A DNA stretch of 36,726 bases from a bacterium (GTDB lineage: Bacteria; Armatimonadota; Zipacnadia; Zipacnadales; UBA11051): NCBI GenBank assembly GCA_021372615.1, contig JAJFUB010000088.1, forward strand, positions 1 through 36,726, written 5' to 3'. The position numbers and the translations under genes are program-made. Under the pieces are notes generated by a model. It saw nothing but the letters and a program-made list of their open reading frames with translations, was not told the DNA's origin and ran no database searches. This document shows positions 2,094-8,315 of this stretch, one piece after another; the stretch's first letter is position 1; every line of letters starts with the position of its first letter.

Positions 2094-4190
2094 TCACTTC
2101 CCCTGGCGGAACGCGACGGGAGTCCCTGCGTCCCGGTCGACCAGGGCGAGCGCGGCCCGCGCATCCCGCAGGTGCTGCTCCAACACGTTCAGCGTCGGCA
2201 GGTGTCGCGGCTCGAAGGTCGTGGTGCGGTCGAGCGCGCTGGACTTGATGATGGTCTGCAGGCTGCGCATGCCATGCCGCAACCGGGCGGTCAGCAGCAT
2301 CATCAGCACGCCGTGGTGCAGTTGCTGTACCTTGGTCTTGCCCAGTTCCCGACGGATCGCCACGGCCCGGTTGAGCAAGTAGCAGTCGCGCCCAGAGGCG
2401 GCGTGCTCGTCCACCGGGGGGACGCTCAGCACGCGCTCCAGCCGGCTGTGGAAGTCGGGCACCTTGTGCGGGATATTGACGGGACGGTCGGCCCAGCGCC
2501 CGAACTCCGTGTCACTCGTCCAGGTCCCGCCGATGAAGGCGAAGACGCACTTACCCAGTGAGCGTTGGGAGTGCCCATCCCAGAAGGCGGCGTCCTGCAT
2601 GGGCATGAGGAAGCGGCTGACCCAACCGCCCTGACGACCGTCCCACAGGCAGTCGAACTCATCCCACTGCACGAAGGGGATCTTGCCCTGTAGCGACCAG
2701 CTCTGCACCTCCAGGAGCTTGTCCCGCAGGTGGTCGGGGCTGGTGAACTGCGAGACGTTGAAAGTCAGGCCCTTCAGGGCGCCGCCGACGGACTCCTGGA
2801 GCTGACTGACCAGGGTGGACTTGCCTGACCCCGGGCCGCCGAACACCGCAAAGCTGAGCACCCCCTCGCCGCTGCTCACGTGCTTGGCGATCCGGTGGCG
2901 CGTCACCAGCAACTCCTCCGCAAACTCCTGGTTGCAGATCTCGAACCGGCCCAGCGTGTACACGACGCTCTCGCTGTATTGTGCATCGGTGGCCTTCAGG
3001 AGGCCGATGGCGCTGTCGAGTGTCGGTGCGGGCGGTTCGTACGGGATGGGCAGGTCGGCTTCGGCGATCTCGGGCTCGGCCAGACTGGACCGGGGGAACA
3101 GCACGCCCCGTCTGATATCCTCCTCACAGTAGCCTCGGCGCAGCAGACGCCGGACGCAGACCAGGGCGCGTCGCGTCCACCACACCAGCTCGGAGTGCTT
3201 CAACTCCCCACCGAGGACATGGCAGAGCGTGGCCGCCATGATGATCCCGGCGCCCAAGACATCGCCGGCGACACGCTGTCCGAAGCTCCCCGGCTGGTCC
3301 CCCGGGAAGACCAGCAGCGTCCCCTCCCGGCCGGGAGCGTCGTTGCCCGGCCCCAGCACCAGGGCGCCGTCATTCTCTATCTGCACCACGACGGCGTCAT
3401 GCCAGCCCTTCTTCTCGTCCCACAGCGTGGGGTCGTCGCAGAGGTACTCCAGGATGCGATGGCGTTGCGTCTGCCACGCCCCCGGCATGCGCAGGCTGCC
3501 CTGGGCCAGATCCTGCGACGGGCAGAACCAGATGCCCCGCCCTCCGGCCTTGGGCTCCCTGACTCTCTTCCAGACATCCGGGAACTTGGGCGGCCCGGCC
3601 ACGGGATCGTGCGTCCGGACCAGGAAGCGACGTCCGGCCAGCAGTTCGGGCAACCACTCCTGGTTCTCCCTGAGCCATCCCTGGCGGAAATCGAGCACTG
3701 CGACCGGCGTGCCATCACCCGCGAACTCCGTGAGGGGCACAGGGATACACCCGCGGCACCTCTCGCCAACCGGGATGGCCAGACCGATCTTCCATACCTG
3801 GTCTCTCCCCCTGTCCTCGGCGGGGACTCCGGTCCAGTCCTCGTCCAGACACGCGTCCGGGTCCGGGACAGGCTTGCTGTCCCGCTCGCCCTCCTTGCGC
3901 TTGCGCCGGTCCTGCTTGGTCAGCAGGTAGATCGACTCCGGCGTGCCCTCCGGCGCCTCCGCCTCACCGCGGTCCAGGCGCTCATGCGGCCCCCCGACGA
4001 GGCTGGCCACTTCCCCTCCGAGGCATTCGACCAACTGACCCGCGCCGCCGCGCACCATGGCGATCTCGAAGTCGTCGGCCTCAACCCACGTGTCACGTAG
4101 ACTGGCCGGCTTGTGCGGCAGCGACCTGATGAGCACGTACTGCTCCCAACCCCAGTCCCCGGTGACCTGTATCTTGGGTGGCATCGCCAT
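2094..4190 (-). CDS. PfkB-like domain fused to AAA+ ATPase, possible conflict-system protein
   Basis: This 698-residue protein has two parts. Residues about 8-365 resemble a degenerate ribokinase/PfkB fold: VTGDWGWEQYVL at 9-20, GGAGQLVECLGG at 48-59, a VLDFRQGW strand, and a late glycine-rich GDVLGAGI segment where PfkB proteins hold their anion-hole region. Residues about 405-640 are an AAA+ domain with Walker A GGPGSGKST (451-459), Walker B containing WDEFD (509-513), a GWVSRFLMPMQD block, FAFIGGT, and PDFHSRLERV as probable sensor and arginine-finger region. From memory, this AAA+ type occurs in multidomain bacterial proteins with PfkB-like and RyR-like domains that are suspected stress or immunity sensors. 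No RyR domain is seen here. The ATG at 4190 has GGGAGGG seven bases upstream. It is transcribed divergently from the Rrf2 gene. Confidence 0.7.
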   Translation of the reverse strand: MAMPPKIQVTGDWGWEQYVLIRSLPHKPASLRDTWVEADDFEIAMVRGGAGQLVECLGGEVASLVGGPHERLDRGEAEAPEGTPESIYLLTKQDRRKRKEGERDSKPVPDPDACLDEDWTGVPAEDRGRDQVWKIGLAIPVGERCRGCIPVPLTEFAGDGTPVAVLDFRQGWLRENQEWLPELLAGRRFLVRTHDPVAGPPKFPDVWKRVREPKAGGRGIWFCPSQDLAQGSLRMPGAWQTQRHRILEYLCDDPTLWDEKKGWHDAVVVQIENDGALVLGPGNDAPGREGTLLVFPGDQPGSFGQRVAGDVLGAGIIMAATLCHVLGGELKHSELVWWTRRALVCVRRLLRRGYCEEDIRRGVLFPRSSLAEPEIAEADLPIPYEPPAPTLDSAIGLLKATDAQYSESVVYTLGRFEICNQEFAEELLVTRHRIAKHVSSGEGVLSFAVFGGPGSGKSTLVSQLQESVGGALKGLTFNVSQFTSPDHLRDKLLEVQSWSLQGKIPFVQWDEFDCLWDGRQGGWVSRFLMPMQDAAFWDGHSQRSLGKCVFAFIGGTWTSDTEFGRWADRPVNIPHKVPDFHSRLERVLSVPPVDEHAASGRDCYLLNRAVAIRRELGKTKVQQLHHGVLMMLLTARLRHGMRSLQTIIKSSALDRTTTFEPRHLPTLNVLEQHLRDARAALALVDRDAGTPVAFRQGK

Positions 4191-4279
4191 CGGTAGTCCC
4201 TCCCGGCAGCAATATCACACATCGGATACTCCTGCGTCGTATTCCGCAGCGGAGCCCTTCTACCTCCCTCCGACGGCCA

Positions 4280-4331
4280 TTGACTCCCCCTCTCGCTTTC
4301 CCTACAATCTACGCTAAGAAGGTAGAGATTG
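4280..4331 (+). promoter_or_regulatory. Promoter and candidate Rrf2 operator for the rrf2-larE unit
   Basis: TTGACT (4280-4285) and TACAAT (4303-4308) are separated by exactly 17 bases, a good sigma-70-type promoter. Overlapping the -10 and the initial transcribed region is an inverted repeat, CAATCT (4305-4310) and AGATTG (4326-4331), with inner CTAC and GTAG. A dyad at this position suits autorepression by the regulator encoded immediately downstream. Binding by that protein is inferred from position only. Confidence 0.6.
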
Positions 4332-4334
4332 ACC

Positions 4335-4784
4335 ATGATGCAAGTGTCCCAGAAGACCCAGTACGCACTGCGTGCCATGTTCGAGCTGGCCCGCCGGCAT
4401 GGTAGCGGCCCGACGCGCATCGGCGACATCGCCGAAATCCAGGCCATCCCCCCGCGGTTCCTGGAGGGCATTCTCAACCAGCTCCGCCAGGCCGGTCTGC
4501 TGCGCTCGGTGCGCGGCGCCCGTGGCGGCTATGAGCTGGCCCTCGAGCCGTCCGAGATCTCAGTCGGGGACATGATGCGCATCATCGAGGGGCCCATCAG
4601 CCCGACCGAGTGCCTCGAGGGCAGCGACGCCGACTGTCCGCTCTATGGCTCGTGCGCCTTCCTGCCCATGTGGCGCCGTGCCGCCCAGGCCCTGGCAGCC
4701 GTGTACGACGGCACCACCTTCGCCGACCTACTCGAAGAGGATGAGCGGATGCGCCAGGGCGCGCCGCTGAACTACGTGATCTAG
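4335..4784 (+). CDS. Rrf2-family transcriptional regulator with three conserved cysteines
   Basis: The 149-residue protein starts VSQKTQYALRAMFELA, the characteristic N-terminal helix of Rrf2 regulators. A winged helix-turn-helix follows (IGDIAEIQAIPPRFLEGILNQL) with the RGARGGYEL wing. Cys93, Cys101 and Cys107 (numbered from ATG 4335) sit where IscR-type members bind an iron-sulfur cluster, with spacing 7 and 5 rather than the usual 5 and 5. It is therefore probably redox- or Fe-S-sensing. ATG codons lie at 4335 and 4338, and a TTG at 4329 is also possible. The AAGAAGG sequence at 4316-4322 and typical family length favour 4335 or 4338. Only three bases separate its stop from larE, so it likely controls larE as well as itself. 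Confidence 0.88.
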   Translation: MMQVSQKTQYALRAMFELARRHGSGPTRIGDIAEIQAIPPRFLEGILNQLRQAGLLRSVRGARGGYELALEPSEISVGDMMRIIEGPISPTECLEGSDADCPLYGSCAFLPMWRRAAQALAAVYDGTTFADLLEEDERMRQGAPLNYVI

Positions 4785-4787
4785 CGC

Positions 4788-5612
4788 ATGACCTCCACGC
4801 CACTTCCCCCCGACTTGCTTGCCAAGCACACCGCCCTCCGGAGCGTCCTGCAGAACATGCGGAGCGTTCTGGTCGCCTTCTCCGGCGGTGTGGACAGTTC
4901 GCTGCTGCTGGCGGTGGCGCATGAGGCGCTGGGCGACCGCGCCGTGGCGGCAACCGAAGTGTCGCCCCTGTACGGCGCCGAGGAGCTACAGCGCGCGCGG
5001 GAGTTCGCCGCGAGCCTGGGCGCCCGACAGGTGCTCATCGAGGCCCGGCTGGATGACCCCCAGGTGATCGCCAACCCCCCGGACCGCTGCTACTACTGCA
5101 AGCGGCACCTGTTCGAGACCTTGCTGGGCGTGGCAGAGGAGGAGGGGTTGGCCTACGTGGCCGAGGGCGCCCATGCCGACGATCCCCACGACCATCGCCC
5201 CGGCCTGCGGGCGGCCGCCGAGTTGGGCATTCGCGCGCCCCTGGCCGAAGCCGGCCTGACCAAGCAGGACATCCGCGACCTCAGCCGCCACCTTGGCCTG
5301 CCGACATGGAACCTGCCGGCCCAGGCCTGCCTGGCCTCGCGGTTCCCTTACGGCAGCCCTCTCACCGTCGAGAAGCTGGGGCAGGTGGCGGCGGCCGAGC
5401 GGGCGCTACACGGGTTGGGGCTGGGCGAGGTGCGCGTGCGGCACTATGGGGACCTGGCGCGCATTGAGGCACCCGTGGGGGACCTGCCGCGCCTGACCGG
5501 CGAACTCCGGGCGCAGGTCGTGGCGGCCCTGAAGGCGGCCGGGTTCATCTACGTGACCCTCGACCTCCAGGGCTTCCGCTCCGGCAGCATGAACGAACCC
5601 CTCCGCCGGTAG
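4788..5612 (+). CDS. larE: ATP-dependent sacrificial sulfur transferase LarE
   Basis: LarE adenylylates and then sulfurates the pyridinium dicarboxylate precursor of the nickel-pincer nucleotide cofactor, giving up a cysteine sulfur in some species. The 274-residue protein has the PP-loop SGGVDSS at 32-38, the NPPDRCYYCKR block at 96-106, the FPYGS segment at 186-190, and the family's SGSMNE C-terminal signature. Cys181 in PAQACLASRF corresponds to the sacrificial cysteine of Lactobacillus LarE. No LarB, LarC or LarA is in the window, so partner genes must lie elsewhere or this copy serves another thiolation. It is in an operon with the Rrf2 regulator (three-base gap), suggesting sulfur or redox control. 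Confidence 0.9.
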   Translation: MTSTPLPPDLLAKHTALRSVLQNMRSVLVAFSGGVDSSLLLAVAHEALGDRAVAATEVSPLYGAEELQRAREFAASLGARQVLIEARLDDPQVIANPPDRCYYCKRHLFETLLGVAEEEGLAYVAEGAHADDPHDHRPGLRAAAELGIRAPLAEAGLTKQDIRDLSRHLGLPTWNLPAQACLASRFPYGSPLTVEKLGQVAAAERALHGLGLGEVRVRHYGDLARIEAPVGDLPRLTGELRAQVVAALKAAGFIYVTLDLQGFRSGSMNEPLRR

Positions 5613-5872: not shown

Positions 5873-5899
5873 TTGTTCGATCTTGGGATGTGCTATAAT
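5873..5899 (+). promoter_or_regulatory. Extended -10 promoter of the R-M unit
   Basis: TGCTATAAT (5891-5899) is an extended -10 element, with a weak -35 TTGTTC (5873-5878) at 15 bases. The element contains an in-frame ATG (5898), which therefore cannot be the methyltransferase start on this transcript. This supports the start at 5937, about 30 bases after the expected transcription start. Confidence 0.6.
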
Positions 5900-5936
5900 G
5901 CACGGCAATCCCGCCGCGCCTGGGAAGAAGCCACGC

Positions 5937-6833
5937 ATGCCACACGCCCCGCTTACTCTTGCAGCGCATGAAGTGCGCATCGCCTCGCAGTATGACCCAT
6001 CTGCCGAGGCCACCTTGCACCTGGGCGACTGCCTCGAGTTGATGGCCCAGATACCGGACGCCGCTGCCTCCCTGGTCGTGACCTCACCACCGTATAACAT
6101 CGGGAAGCAGTACGAGAAGAGACGGTCGCTGGACACCTATCTGGCCATGCAGGCGGCCGTCATCAGGGAAGCAGTCAGGATCACTGCGCCCGAGGGCAGC
6201 ATCTGCTGGCAAGTTGGCAACTACGTCGAGAACGGTGAGATCGTCCCTCTGGATGTGCTCCTGTACCCGATCTTCGCCGGGCACGGGCTTCAACTGCGCA
6301 ACCGTGTGGTCTGGCATTTCGAGCACGGCCTGCACTGCACGAAGCGCTTCTCCGGCCGTTACGAGGTCATCCTCTGGTTCACCAGGACCGAGGCCTACCA
6401 TTTCGATCTTGATGCAGTGCGAGTGCCGCAGAAGTACCAGTCCAAGAAGTACTTCAAGGGGCCGAAGGCCGGGCAGCTCTCGTGCCATCCCGCTGGCAAG
6501 AACCCGGGCGACCTGTGGATCATGCCCAACGTGAAGGCTAACCACCGCGAGAAGACGGCGCACCCGTGCCAGTACCCCATCGCGCTCGTTGAGCGCCTGG
6601 TGCTTGCCTTGACGAAGCCGGGCGACCTCGTCGTAGACCCCTACATCGGTGTTGGTACTTCCGCCGTAGCCGCGCTCATGCACCAGCGGCGAGCCGCAGG
6701 TGCAGACATCGTGGCCGAGTACCTGGACATCGCCCGACAGCGCATCGCTCAGGCGCTCGCCGGCACGGTACCGTACCGTCCGCTAGACATGCCTATATAC
6801 GATCCATCGCTGCCCAACGGGGGACACAACTGA
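5937..6833 (+). CDS. Type II DNA methyltransferase, beta class (probable N4-cytosine)
   Basis: This is the modification half of a restriction-modification pair. The 298-residue protein has the catalytic motif IV TSPPYN at 49-54, then a variable target-recognition stretch, then the HPCQYP motif X and the AdoMet-binding motif I, DPYIGVGTS, near the C-terminus. That order defines the beta class. SPPY rather than DPPY favours N4-cytosine methylation, as in the BglII-type systems to which its partner belongs. The start at 5937 has GGGAAGAAG at 5922-5930, six bases away. Upstream in-frame TTG and ATG codons overlap the promoter. Its TGA overlaps the ATG of the endonuclease by one base. It would protect the host at a GATC-centred site, which is inferred from the partner. 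Confidence 0.88.
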   Translation: MPHAPLTLAAHEVRIASQYDPSAEATLHLGDCLELMAQIPDAAASLVVTSPPYNIGKQYEKRRSLDTYLAMQAAVIREAVRITAPEGSICWQVGNYVENGEIVPLDVLLYPIFAGHGLQLRNRVVWHFEHGLHCTKRFSGRYEVILWFTRTEAYHFDLDAVRVPQKYQSKKYFKGPKAGQLSCHPAGKNPGDLWIMPNVKANHREKTAHPCQYPIALVERLVLALTKPGDLVVDPYIGVGTSAVAALMHQRRAAGADIVAEYLDIARQRIAQALAGTVPYRPLDMPIYDPSLPNGGHN

Positions 6834-7444
6834 TGCGCATCGTGGAGATGTACTCACACCTCAACGGGCACGAACACATTCTGGTTCACAAGCCTGCCAT
6901 CTGGAAGGACATCGAGAACTGCGTCCGGCGCATTGATGCCGAGGCATGCCGGACCAAGATATCCAGGGAAAAGACAATGCGTGGGAAGCTGCTCTACAGC
7001 CCGGAGGCACTCAATGGTTGTTTTGGCCGCGAGCTAGCCGCGCGCGAGTGGGCAGAGTCCCGCACCTCATACTGGGTGACTCACGACCATCAGTTGATCC
7101 GCAGGACCCTCGCTCTGGCCCCCGGCGACCAGAAGCGGGCCATCGAGGAGGCAGGGCACACGCCCATCTTCTCCTACAACCAGACGGACTTCGTCAAGAA
7201 CCGCATTGCCGTGGAAGTGCAGCTAGGCAAGTACAGCTTCATCGCCTATGACCTCTTCGTCAAGCACATGGCGTTCTTCGTCGGCGATGTCATTGACGTT
7301 GGTGTCGAGATACTGGCCATGAAGGAACTCCAGAGCCAGATGTCCTCGGGTGTCGGGTACTACGAGGGCGCGCTCTACGATCTCATTCGCCAGGGGCGCG
7401 GCGTCCCCGCAGTGCCGTTGGTTCTCGTTGGCATCGCGCCGTGA
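6833..7444 (+). CDS. Type II restriction endonuclease, BglII/BstYI family
   Basis: The 203-residue protein resembles BglII and BstYI, which cut AGATCT and RGATCY. The active-site pattern Asp-(8 residues)-Glu-x-Gln is present: Asp in QTDFVKNRIAVEVQ, then EVQ nine and eleven residues on. This matches the Asp/Glu/Gln set of BglII. The downstream segment AYDLFVKHMAFFVGDVIDVG and the C-terminal RQGRGVPAVPLVLVGI are also typical. Length agrees with the family (about 200-220). TGATG overlaps the methyltransferase stop, so translation is coupled and the methyltransferase is made first. AGATCT sites occur in this window, for example near 4556, 9225 and 36343, so the host must be modified or the true site differs. 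Exact specificity cannot be read. Confidence 0.85.
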   Translation: MRIVEMYSHLNGHEHILVHKPAIWKDIENCVRRIDAEACRTKISREKTMRGKLLYSPEALNGCFGRELAAREWAESRTSYWVTHDHQLIRRTLALAPGDQKRAIEEAGHTPIFSYNQTDFVKNRIAVEVQLGKYSFIAYDLFVKHMAFFVGDVIDVGVEILAMKELQSQMSSGVGYYEGALYDLIRQGRGVPAVPLVLVGIAP

Positions 7445-7491
7445 GCGGCGCCGTTCCCGACAGTCGTCCCCTTGTGTGAGTGAGCCGCGGT

Positions 7492-7521
7492 TTGCTCCTC
7501 GCCTCCTCTCGCGAGTATAAT
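7492..7521 (+). promoter_or_regulatory. Promoter of the PHP-domain gene
   Basis: TTGCTC (7492-7497) and a consensus TATAAT (7516-7521) are 18 bases apart and sit 29 bases before the PHP gene. This gives the gene its own transcription start, independent of the R-M unit ending at 7444. Confidence 0.6.
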
Positions 7522-7550
7522 GCCTCCCAGACTATCCCCTGGAGTCTCAC

Positions 7551-8315
7551 ATGTTGCAGCAGGCTTTTGACTGTCACACCCACACCGTGCGCTCGGCGTG
7601 CGGTGAGGACATCACCGATGAGTGGCTAGGCGAGCGGGCGCGGGAGAATGGCTTCAGCTTCGCCGTCACCGACCACACGATGCACCTGTACTACGAGCGC
7701 GAAATCGCCTGGGCCATGATGAGCGAGGACGGCATCCGGCTCTTCGAGGAGCGCCGGGAGTCGGGCCGCGAGACCATCCTGCGCTACCTGGACGACCTCC
7801 GCTCCTTCGCGACGGGCAACATGCGGGTCGGCGTCGAGCTGGATGTGCTGCCCGACGGGCAGATCATGTTCGCCGACGACCTGCGCGACCAGATGGACCT
7901 CTTCGTCGGCGCCATCCACTACCTGCCCACGGTCAAGCACAAGCTGGGGCAGGAGGCCGTCGAGGAGGAGTACCGCCGGCAGACCCGGTGGCTGCTGGAG
8001 TACGGCGTGGCCGTCCTGGCCCACCCCTTCCGCGCCGTCCTGTCGGCGGGCTATGAGGCGGGCGAGGAGCTGGTGCGGTGGACTGTCGAGCAGGCGGCCC
8101 AGTATGGCACGGCCGTGGAGATCAACTCTCACAAGCCCTTCGTCGAGCACGATGTCCAGATGGTGACACTGGCGCTCGAGCACGGTCTGCAGGTCGCGTG
8201 GGGCACCGATGCCCACAACAGCCGCGAGTTCGGGCAGTTCGGCTACCACAAGGACATCATGCGGCAGGCCGGCCTCGCCGACGACGAGATGGGGGACGTG
8301 CTGTTCAGGATGTAG
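7551..8315 (+). CDS. PHP-domain metal-dependent phosphoesterase
   Basis: The 254-residue protein is a stand-alone PHP domain. The metal ligands are visible in order: DCHTHT (7-12), VTDHT (39-43), a GVELDVLPDG glutamate, GAIHYLP, VLAHPF, EINSHK and finally GTDAHNSREFG. Such trinuclear-metal enzymes hydrolyse phosphomonoesters, as in histidinol-phosphate phosphatase HisK, or nucleotide 3',5'-bisphosphates. The spacing is closer to the HisK-like branch, but no histidine-biosynthesis neighbour is present, so the substrate is open. TGGAG lies upstream of ATG 7551. A promoter precedes it, and the next gene begins 51 bases downstream on the same strand. Confidence 0.85.
   Translation: MLQQAFDCHTHTVRSACGEDITDEWLGERARENGFSFAVTDHTMHLYYEREIAWAMMSEDGIRLFEERRESGRETILRYLDDLRSFATGNMRVGVELDVLPDGQIMFADDLRDQMDLFVGAIHYLPTVKHKLGQEAVEEEYRRQTRWLLEYGVAVLAHPFRAVLSAGYEAGEELVRWTVEQAAQYGTAVEINSHKPFVEHDVQMVTLALEHGLQVAWGTDAHNSREFGQFGYHKDIMRQAGLADDEMGDVLFRM

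What the first reader, a model, noticed from the sequence alone, without database searches (positions are those of the whole stretch)
2094..4190. PfkB-like domain fused to a AAA+ ATPase
The N-terminal half is a worn PfkB-like fold and the C-terminal half a full AAA+ domain with Walker A, Walker B and a conserved FLMPMQD block. This looks like a sensor coupled to an ATP-driven remodeller. It stands alone in the locus, so it may act by itself.
Basis: partly seen in the sequence, partly recalled or inferred. Interest (0 to 1): 0.58.

Follow-up and report, generated by a model that had tools for sequence, protein, structure and literature searches.

The report
Dead-kinase-like domain fused to AAA+ motor
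This bacterial gene encodes a worn-out sugar-kinase-like domain joined to a Clp-type ATP-driven motor; its relatives elsewhere carry or sit beside domains of nucleotide-based immune signalling, so it is probably a stripped-down member of such a system rather than a metabolic enzyme.

Summary
The gene is real: a 698-codon ORF, 2094-4190 (-). The C-half is a genuine AAA+ domain, closest by profile to the second ATPase domain of ClpB/Hsp104; the flagged FLMPMQD lies where ClpB has its LLQVLDDG-type block. The N-half scores against no Pfam family, but a profile of 14 relatives matches PfkB kinases at both the first and last signatures, in order; 0 of 200 shuffles score as high. The catalytic GAGD Asp is missing in all 14: a dead PfkB-like domain is likely, though AlphaFold could not confirm the fold. 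The family is not a loner. Of 8 full-length relatives scanned, 6 carry a C-terminal RyR domain. An SLOG-like protein, fused or next door, occurs in 9 of 41 genomes of the order, all 9 holding a relative. Several loci also hold DUF4062/NACHT/TIR STAND proteins. A 2026 preprint shows phage RyR domains bind or cleave cyclic ADP-ribose immune signals. The window copy and its 44% relative form a divergent short clade without RyR/SLOG; the window copy has no such neighbour, only a BglII-type restriction system 1.7 kb away. A sensor-gated remodeller in nucleotide signalling is the best reading; ligand and substrate are unknown.

The parts
2094..4190 (-). 698-aa gene: dead-PfkB-like half + AAA+ half
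   Evidence: ORF; relatives
3100..4190 (-). N-half, PfkB/ribokinase-like (approx. aa 1-363)
   Evidence: two collinear hhalign matches to PfkB, scores 25.3 and 24.8 against shuffle maximum 19.6 in 200
4137..4160 (-). GDWGWEQY, matches the N-terminal PfkB strand; the Asp that most relatives keep (GDVTIDW) is absent here
3231..3266 (-). GDVLGAGIIMAA, aligned to PfkB DTTGAGDaFaAG; catalytic Asp replaced
2133..2990 (-). AAA+ ATPase half
   Evidence: profile A4; PDB Hsp104/ClpE hits; hhalign to ClpB/C D2
2817..2840 (-). Walker A GGPGSGKS
2652..2675 (-). Walker B FVQWDEFD
2592..2612 (-). FLMPMQD block, equivalent to the ClpB D2 LLQVLDDG-type block
2439..2456 (-). DFHSRL, candidate arginine finger (R583 invariant)
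   Evidence: role inferred from recalled AAA+ anatomy
2259..2276 (-). HGMRSL, candidate sensor 2 (R642 invariant), like GARPLRR of Clp
   Evidence: role inferred

Best explanation
A short member of a family whose usual build is [catalytically dead PfkB-like domain]-[ClpB-D2-like AAA+]-[RyR]-[SLOG-like], working in nucleotide (NAD+/ADP-ribose class) signalling systems with STAND/TIR proteins. Proposed working: the dead kinase fold binds a nucleoside/ribosyl ligand or a partner and gates a Clp-like ATPase ring that remodels a partner protein. In the window form the RyR and SLOG-like modules are gone, so it either senses through its own N-half or borrows the RyR proteins of the C55 locus. Shown: domain anatomy, loss of the PfkB catalytic Asp, family associations. 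Inferred: ligand class, ring formation, remodelling, any immune role.
For: N-half/PfkB matches, 0 of 200 shuffles as high. AAA+ with Walker A/B, candidate Arg finger and sensor 2, nearest Hsp104/ClpE and ClpB/C D2. RyR above cut-off in 6 of 8 full-length relatives scanned. SLOG-like partner in 9 of 41 order genomes, all 9 among the 10 with a relative, none in the other 31 (Fisher 2.9e-8, or 2.5e-6 without the three fused-only genomes). DUF4062/NACHT/TIR neighbours in G031, G002, G022. RyR ligand residues H, W, H, D at the RyDEP spacing in 12 of 21 RyR sequences, including both RyR domains of the own-genome C55 locus (PMC13232231).
Against: The window copy has no RyR, SLOG-like or STAND neighbour, and the own genome has no SLOG-like match. 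No Pfam or PADLOC family recognises the protein. Fold not confirmed. Target and G031 form a long, divergent branch, so function may have shifted. Nothing here shows phage defence, ATPase activity or ligand binding. RyR residue spacing is lost in several fused RyR domains.
Confidence: 0.45

Rival explanations
1. A relic: a former partner of a conflict system that lost its RyR/SLOG modules and neighbours and is drifting.
For: No partner at the locus; target and G031 sit on a long stem of 2.52; the G028 copy is broken into fragments.
Against: Intact 698-codon frame with P-loop, Walker B and candidate Arg residues kept; the 44% relative G031 has the same short build inside a multi-gene cluster.
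Confidence: 0.2
2. A self-sufficient sensor-remodeller, not tied to nucleotide signalling.
For: Lone gene in the window; the Streptomyces plasmid copy is also short and has no gene annotated as RyR, TIR or NACHT within 8 kb either side (a large 'ATP-binding protein' there was not examined).
Against: The closest relative G031 sits between STAND, SLOG-like and TrkA-RyR genes.
Confidence: 0.2
3. A working PfkB kinase with an attached chaperone, in metabolism.
For: Sequence match to PfkB signatures.
Against: Catalytic GAGD Asp missing in all 14 aligned; several relatives sit beside STAND/TIR/RyR genes.
Confidence: 0.05
4. An accessory or regulator of the BglII-type restriction system (5883-7444), or of the divergent Rrf2-LarE genes.
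For: Proximity; divergent start 138 bp from the Rrf2 frame.
Against: Opposite strand with Rrf2-LarE in between; no restriction gene was seen among the relatives' neighbours that were scanned.
Confidence: 0.08

Closest known systems
RyR domain-containing protein (e.g. WP_264051538.1, Methylobacterium sp. FF17 plasmid pA)
   Same: Same N-half and AAA+ half by family profile; annotated as RyR domain-containing
   Different: Has a C-terminal RyR domain; neighbour of a SIR2/TPR giant
ClpB/Hsp104 second AAA+ domain (HCLR-type)
   Same: FNVSQF/IDMSEY-type box, Walker B, LLQVLDDG-type block, GAR-type sensor 2 region
   Different: Single AAA+ domain, no Clp N-domain or first ATPase domain
PfkB/ribokinase family (PF00294)
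   Same: First and last signature regions align in order
   Different: No catalytic Asp; below Pfam detection
RyDEP phage RyR proteins (PMC13232231)
   Same: The RyR domains at this family's loci keep the same ligand residues at the same spacing in 12 of 21
   Different: The window protein itself has no RyR domain

Membership tests
PfkB/ribokinase | Profile detection by PF00294 | tested here: not met
   No hit in the target or 10 N-half members
PfkB/ribokinase | Order and place of N- and C-terminal signatures | tested here: met
   hhalign matches 4-55 to 29-76 and 249-329 to 246-308; shuffles never as high
PfkB/ribokinase | Catalytic Asp in GAGD | tested here: not met
   Absent in 14 of 14
PfkB/ribokinase | Ribokinase fold | tested here: inconclusive
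   Single-sequence AlphaFold pLDDT 34.3 and 33.7
AAA+ ATPase | Walker A and B | tested here: met
   Core P-loop and DE residues invariant in 18 relatives
AAA+ ATPase | Arginine finger and sensor 2 | tested here: inconclusive
   R583 and R642 invariant; roles inferred
AAA+ ATPase | Oligomeric ring, ATP hydrolysis | not testable with these tools
   needs purified protein
PfkB-AAA-RyR family | Homologous N-half and AAA half | tested here: met
   Profile hits over both halves
PfkB-AAA-RyR family | C-terminal RyR domain | tested here: not met
   No RyR in the target; own-genome RyR only at C55
Known anti-phage system (PADLOC) | Match to a PADLOC model | tested here: not met
   Only E 0.035 and 0.046, weak P-loop-region hits

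The most novel reading that the evidence does not exclude
A receptor class for ADP-ribose-type immune signals in which a dead ribokinase fold, rather than one of the sensor domains known from such systems (SLOG, SAVED, Macro; recalled), gates a Clp-like AAA+ ring: RyR and SLOG-like modules are added, detached or dropped around this fixed core, and the window gene is the core alone.
Probability: 0.2. Interest if true: 0.8.

Novelty: new variant of a known kind. Interest (0 to 1): 0.45.

Why it matters
If right, it links a new AAA+ family to RyR/cyclic-ADP-ribose signalling in bacteria, just as RyR domains were reported to bind those signals, and gives testable ligand and partner predictions. 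It would also show a kinase fold reused as a sensor for a Clp-type motor.

Tried and rejected
Rejected: the Haladaptatus locus L014, a chance tblastn hit in a sulfatase-like ORF. Viral contigs gave no relatives in 3 completed scans; phage records none. My first PfkB comparison used only 3 PfkB sequences and an untrimmed tail and gave nothing (score 3.5); the result reported uses 13 sequences and a trimmed core (on). A version with match columns only gave the same two matches. hhalign probabilities stay low (2-3%), so the weight rests on shuffles, order and decoys. No structure-library search was run, because both models are low-confidence.

The SLOG name rests on weak YAcAr hits in 2 fused proteins; the separate genes L019 and L018 have no Pfam hit. 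The SLOG-like model was built from 6 sequences of relatives' loci, so co-occurrence is partly built in; the 31 genomes without a relative are the control. DUF4062 is widespread in some genomes (13 in G004) and also rings in 3 of 14 control genomes, so only adjacency counts. Gene calls in relatives are from a simple GC-bias ORF script; some starts are wrong. Rrf2, restriction and operon links were considered and judged weak.

Full report
What is there. The ORF at 2094-4190 (-) is intact, 698 codons. Window neighbours are PurQ-type GATase (431-1279), a hexapeptide transferase (1367-1999 -), Rrf2 (4329-4784), LarE (4788-5612), an N6/N4 DNA methylase (5883-6833) and a BglII-type endonuclease (6833-7444), then mostly carbohydrate and housekeeping genes (9 further ORFs scanned, not every ORF of the window).

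The AAA+ half. Pfam gives only weak P-loop hits in the target (best E 0.0012, below cut-off). A profile of 10 family members finds Hsp104 and ClpE among its best PDB hits (E 6e-5 to 4e-4); the top row, a ciliary protein with several P-loops, is a sum of weak P-loop matches, and many other P-loop proteins follow. Against the four Clp-type proteins of the same genome the hhalign p-value is 9e-6 for the group; singly it is 4e-7 and 4e-5 for the two ClpB/C-type ones, and weaker for the ClpX- and HslU-like ones (the ClpB/C, ClpX and HslU names are mine, from length and motif). R583 (DFHSRL) and R642 (HGMRSL) are invariant in 18 family members and fit an arginine finger and sensor 2 (inferred).

The N-half. 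No family model sees it. A 14-sequence profile against 13 PfkB proteins of the same genome gives two separate matches in the right order and at near-equal positions (scores 25.3 and 24.8). Column shuffles reached at most 18.5 and reversed-block shuffles 19.6 (100 each); an epimerase decoy gave 17.0 and the AAA half 14.9. The only PDB rows up to E 10 are three sequences of FruK, a PfkB-family kinase, at E 0.29, in the VVSLGAAGAL strand. The catalytic Asp of GAGD is missing in all 14, and the target also lacks the Asp of the first motif that most relatives keep. I take it as a dead PfkB-like domain, with the fold unproven: both AlphaFold runs had pLDDT near 34.

The family. Relatives were found in 10 of 41 genomes of the order (protein query, own included) and 22 of 291 of the phylum (profile, E up to 1e-10; some of these match only the RyR end). 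Pfam RyR is above cut-off in 6 of 8 full-length relatives scanned; the two without it are G031 and G002. Short forms without RyR are the target, its 44% relative G031, and a Streptomyces plasmid protein. Target and G031 form one clade (100/100); the Streptomyces one lies elsewhere, so the short build arose or was kept more than once (19 rows).

The company. The SLOG-like protein is found in 9 of 41 order genomes, always on the same contig as a relative: a separate gene in G031, G017, G025, G028, G002 and G020, fused in G022, G027, G004 and again G002. The own genome has none, with 9 positive genomes as control. G031 reads DUF4062-STAND-WD40, short relative, SLOG-like, DUF4062-NACHT-TPR, TrkA-RyR, all one strand. 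G002 adds a TIR-STAND-TPR protein, and G022 has a DUF4062-NACHT-TPR gene within 16 bp of the relative. In the own genome the paralogue at C55 carries RyR and has a small separate RyR gene beside it. Against a uniform picture: the Streptomyces copy has no such annotated neighbour, and the neighbours of G017, G025, G020 and G004 beyond the SLOG-like and RyR genes were not all scanned.

Why nucleotide signalling. PMC13232231 (2026 preprint; parts 1 and 2 of 6 read) reports phage RyR-domain proteins that cleave or sequester 2'/3'cADPR, with H75, W78, H100 and D117 contacting ligand. The same spacing (0, +3, +25, +42) occurs in 12 of 21 RyR sequences from this family's genomes, including both at C55; three more keep three of the four, five fused ones keep H and W only (insertions shift the rest), and the Methylobacterium one was not found by the pattern (G002, which has no RyR, and three short forms were also run and gave none). 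PMC7159879 (passages only) places TIR/SLOG domains as nucleotide-signal generators in conflict systems. No library paper held DUF4062 with RyR, TPR-S with RyR, or RyR domain with SLOG, AAA and prokaryotic. The 2015 review of nucleotide-centric systems that I recall as the likely prior source is not held, so the family may be described there. PMC7016017 and PMC8195603 were seen as passages only and did not bear on the bacterial RyR proteins; other papers were seen in search listings only.

Verdict. Mechanism remains inference.

Noticed in passing
window 5883-7444 (+): Two-gene type II restriction system: N6/N4 methylase and BglII-type endonuclease (PADLOC REase_II 2.9e-95), in the lower-GC stretch 6001-8000.
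   Followed up: partly
L016 8354-8854 (-), own genome C55: Small RyR-only protein directly after the RyR-bearing paralogue; both keep the H/W/H/D ligand spacing. Similar small RyR genes lie by relatives in G020, G102 and G271, and in G146 beside a contig-end fragment.
   Followed up: partly
L015 16517-18271; L023 5516-7468; L052 1468-3465: TrkA_N + RyR proteins, a possible nucleotide-gated channel or transport regulator; the first two lie at loci of this family.
   Followed up: partly
L046 1-1788 (G009): RyR + TPR-S protein whose frame ends in a nucleotide-cyclase-like sequence (cyclase label from motif memory).
   Followed up: no
L017 3167-4025 (G028): A broken copy of the short form followed by an intact SLOG-like gene: a decayed system.
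   Followed up: partly
window 4190-4329: 138-bp divergent region between the target and Rrf2, with one sigma-70-like site for the Rrf2 side.
   Followed up: partly
L025 329-6574 (Methylobacterium plasmid): 2082-aa SIR2-TPR protein near a family member.
   Followed up: no
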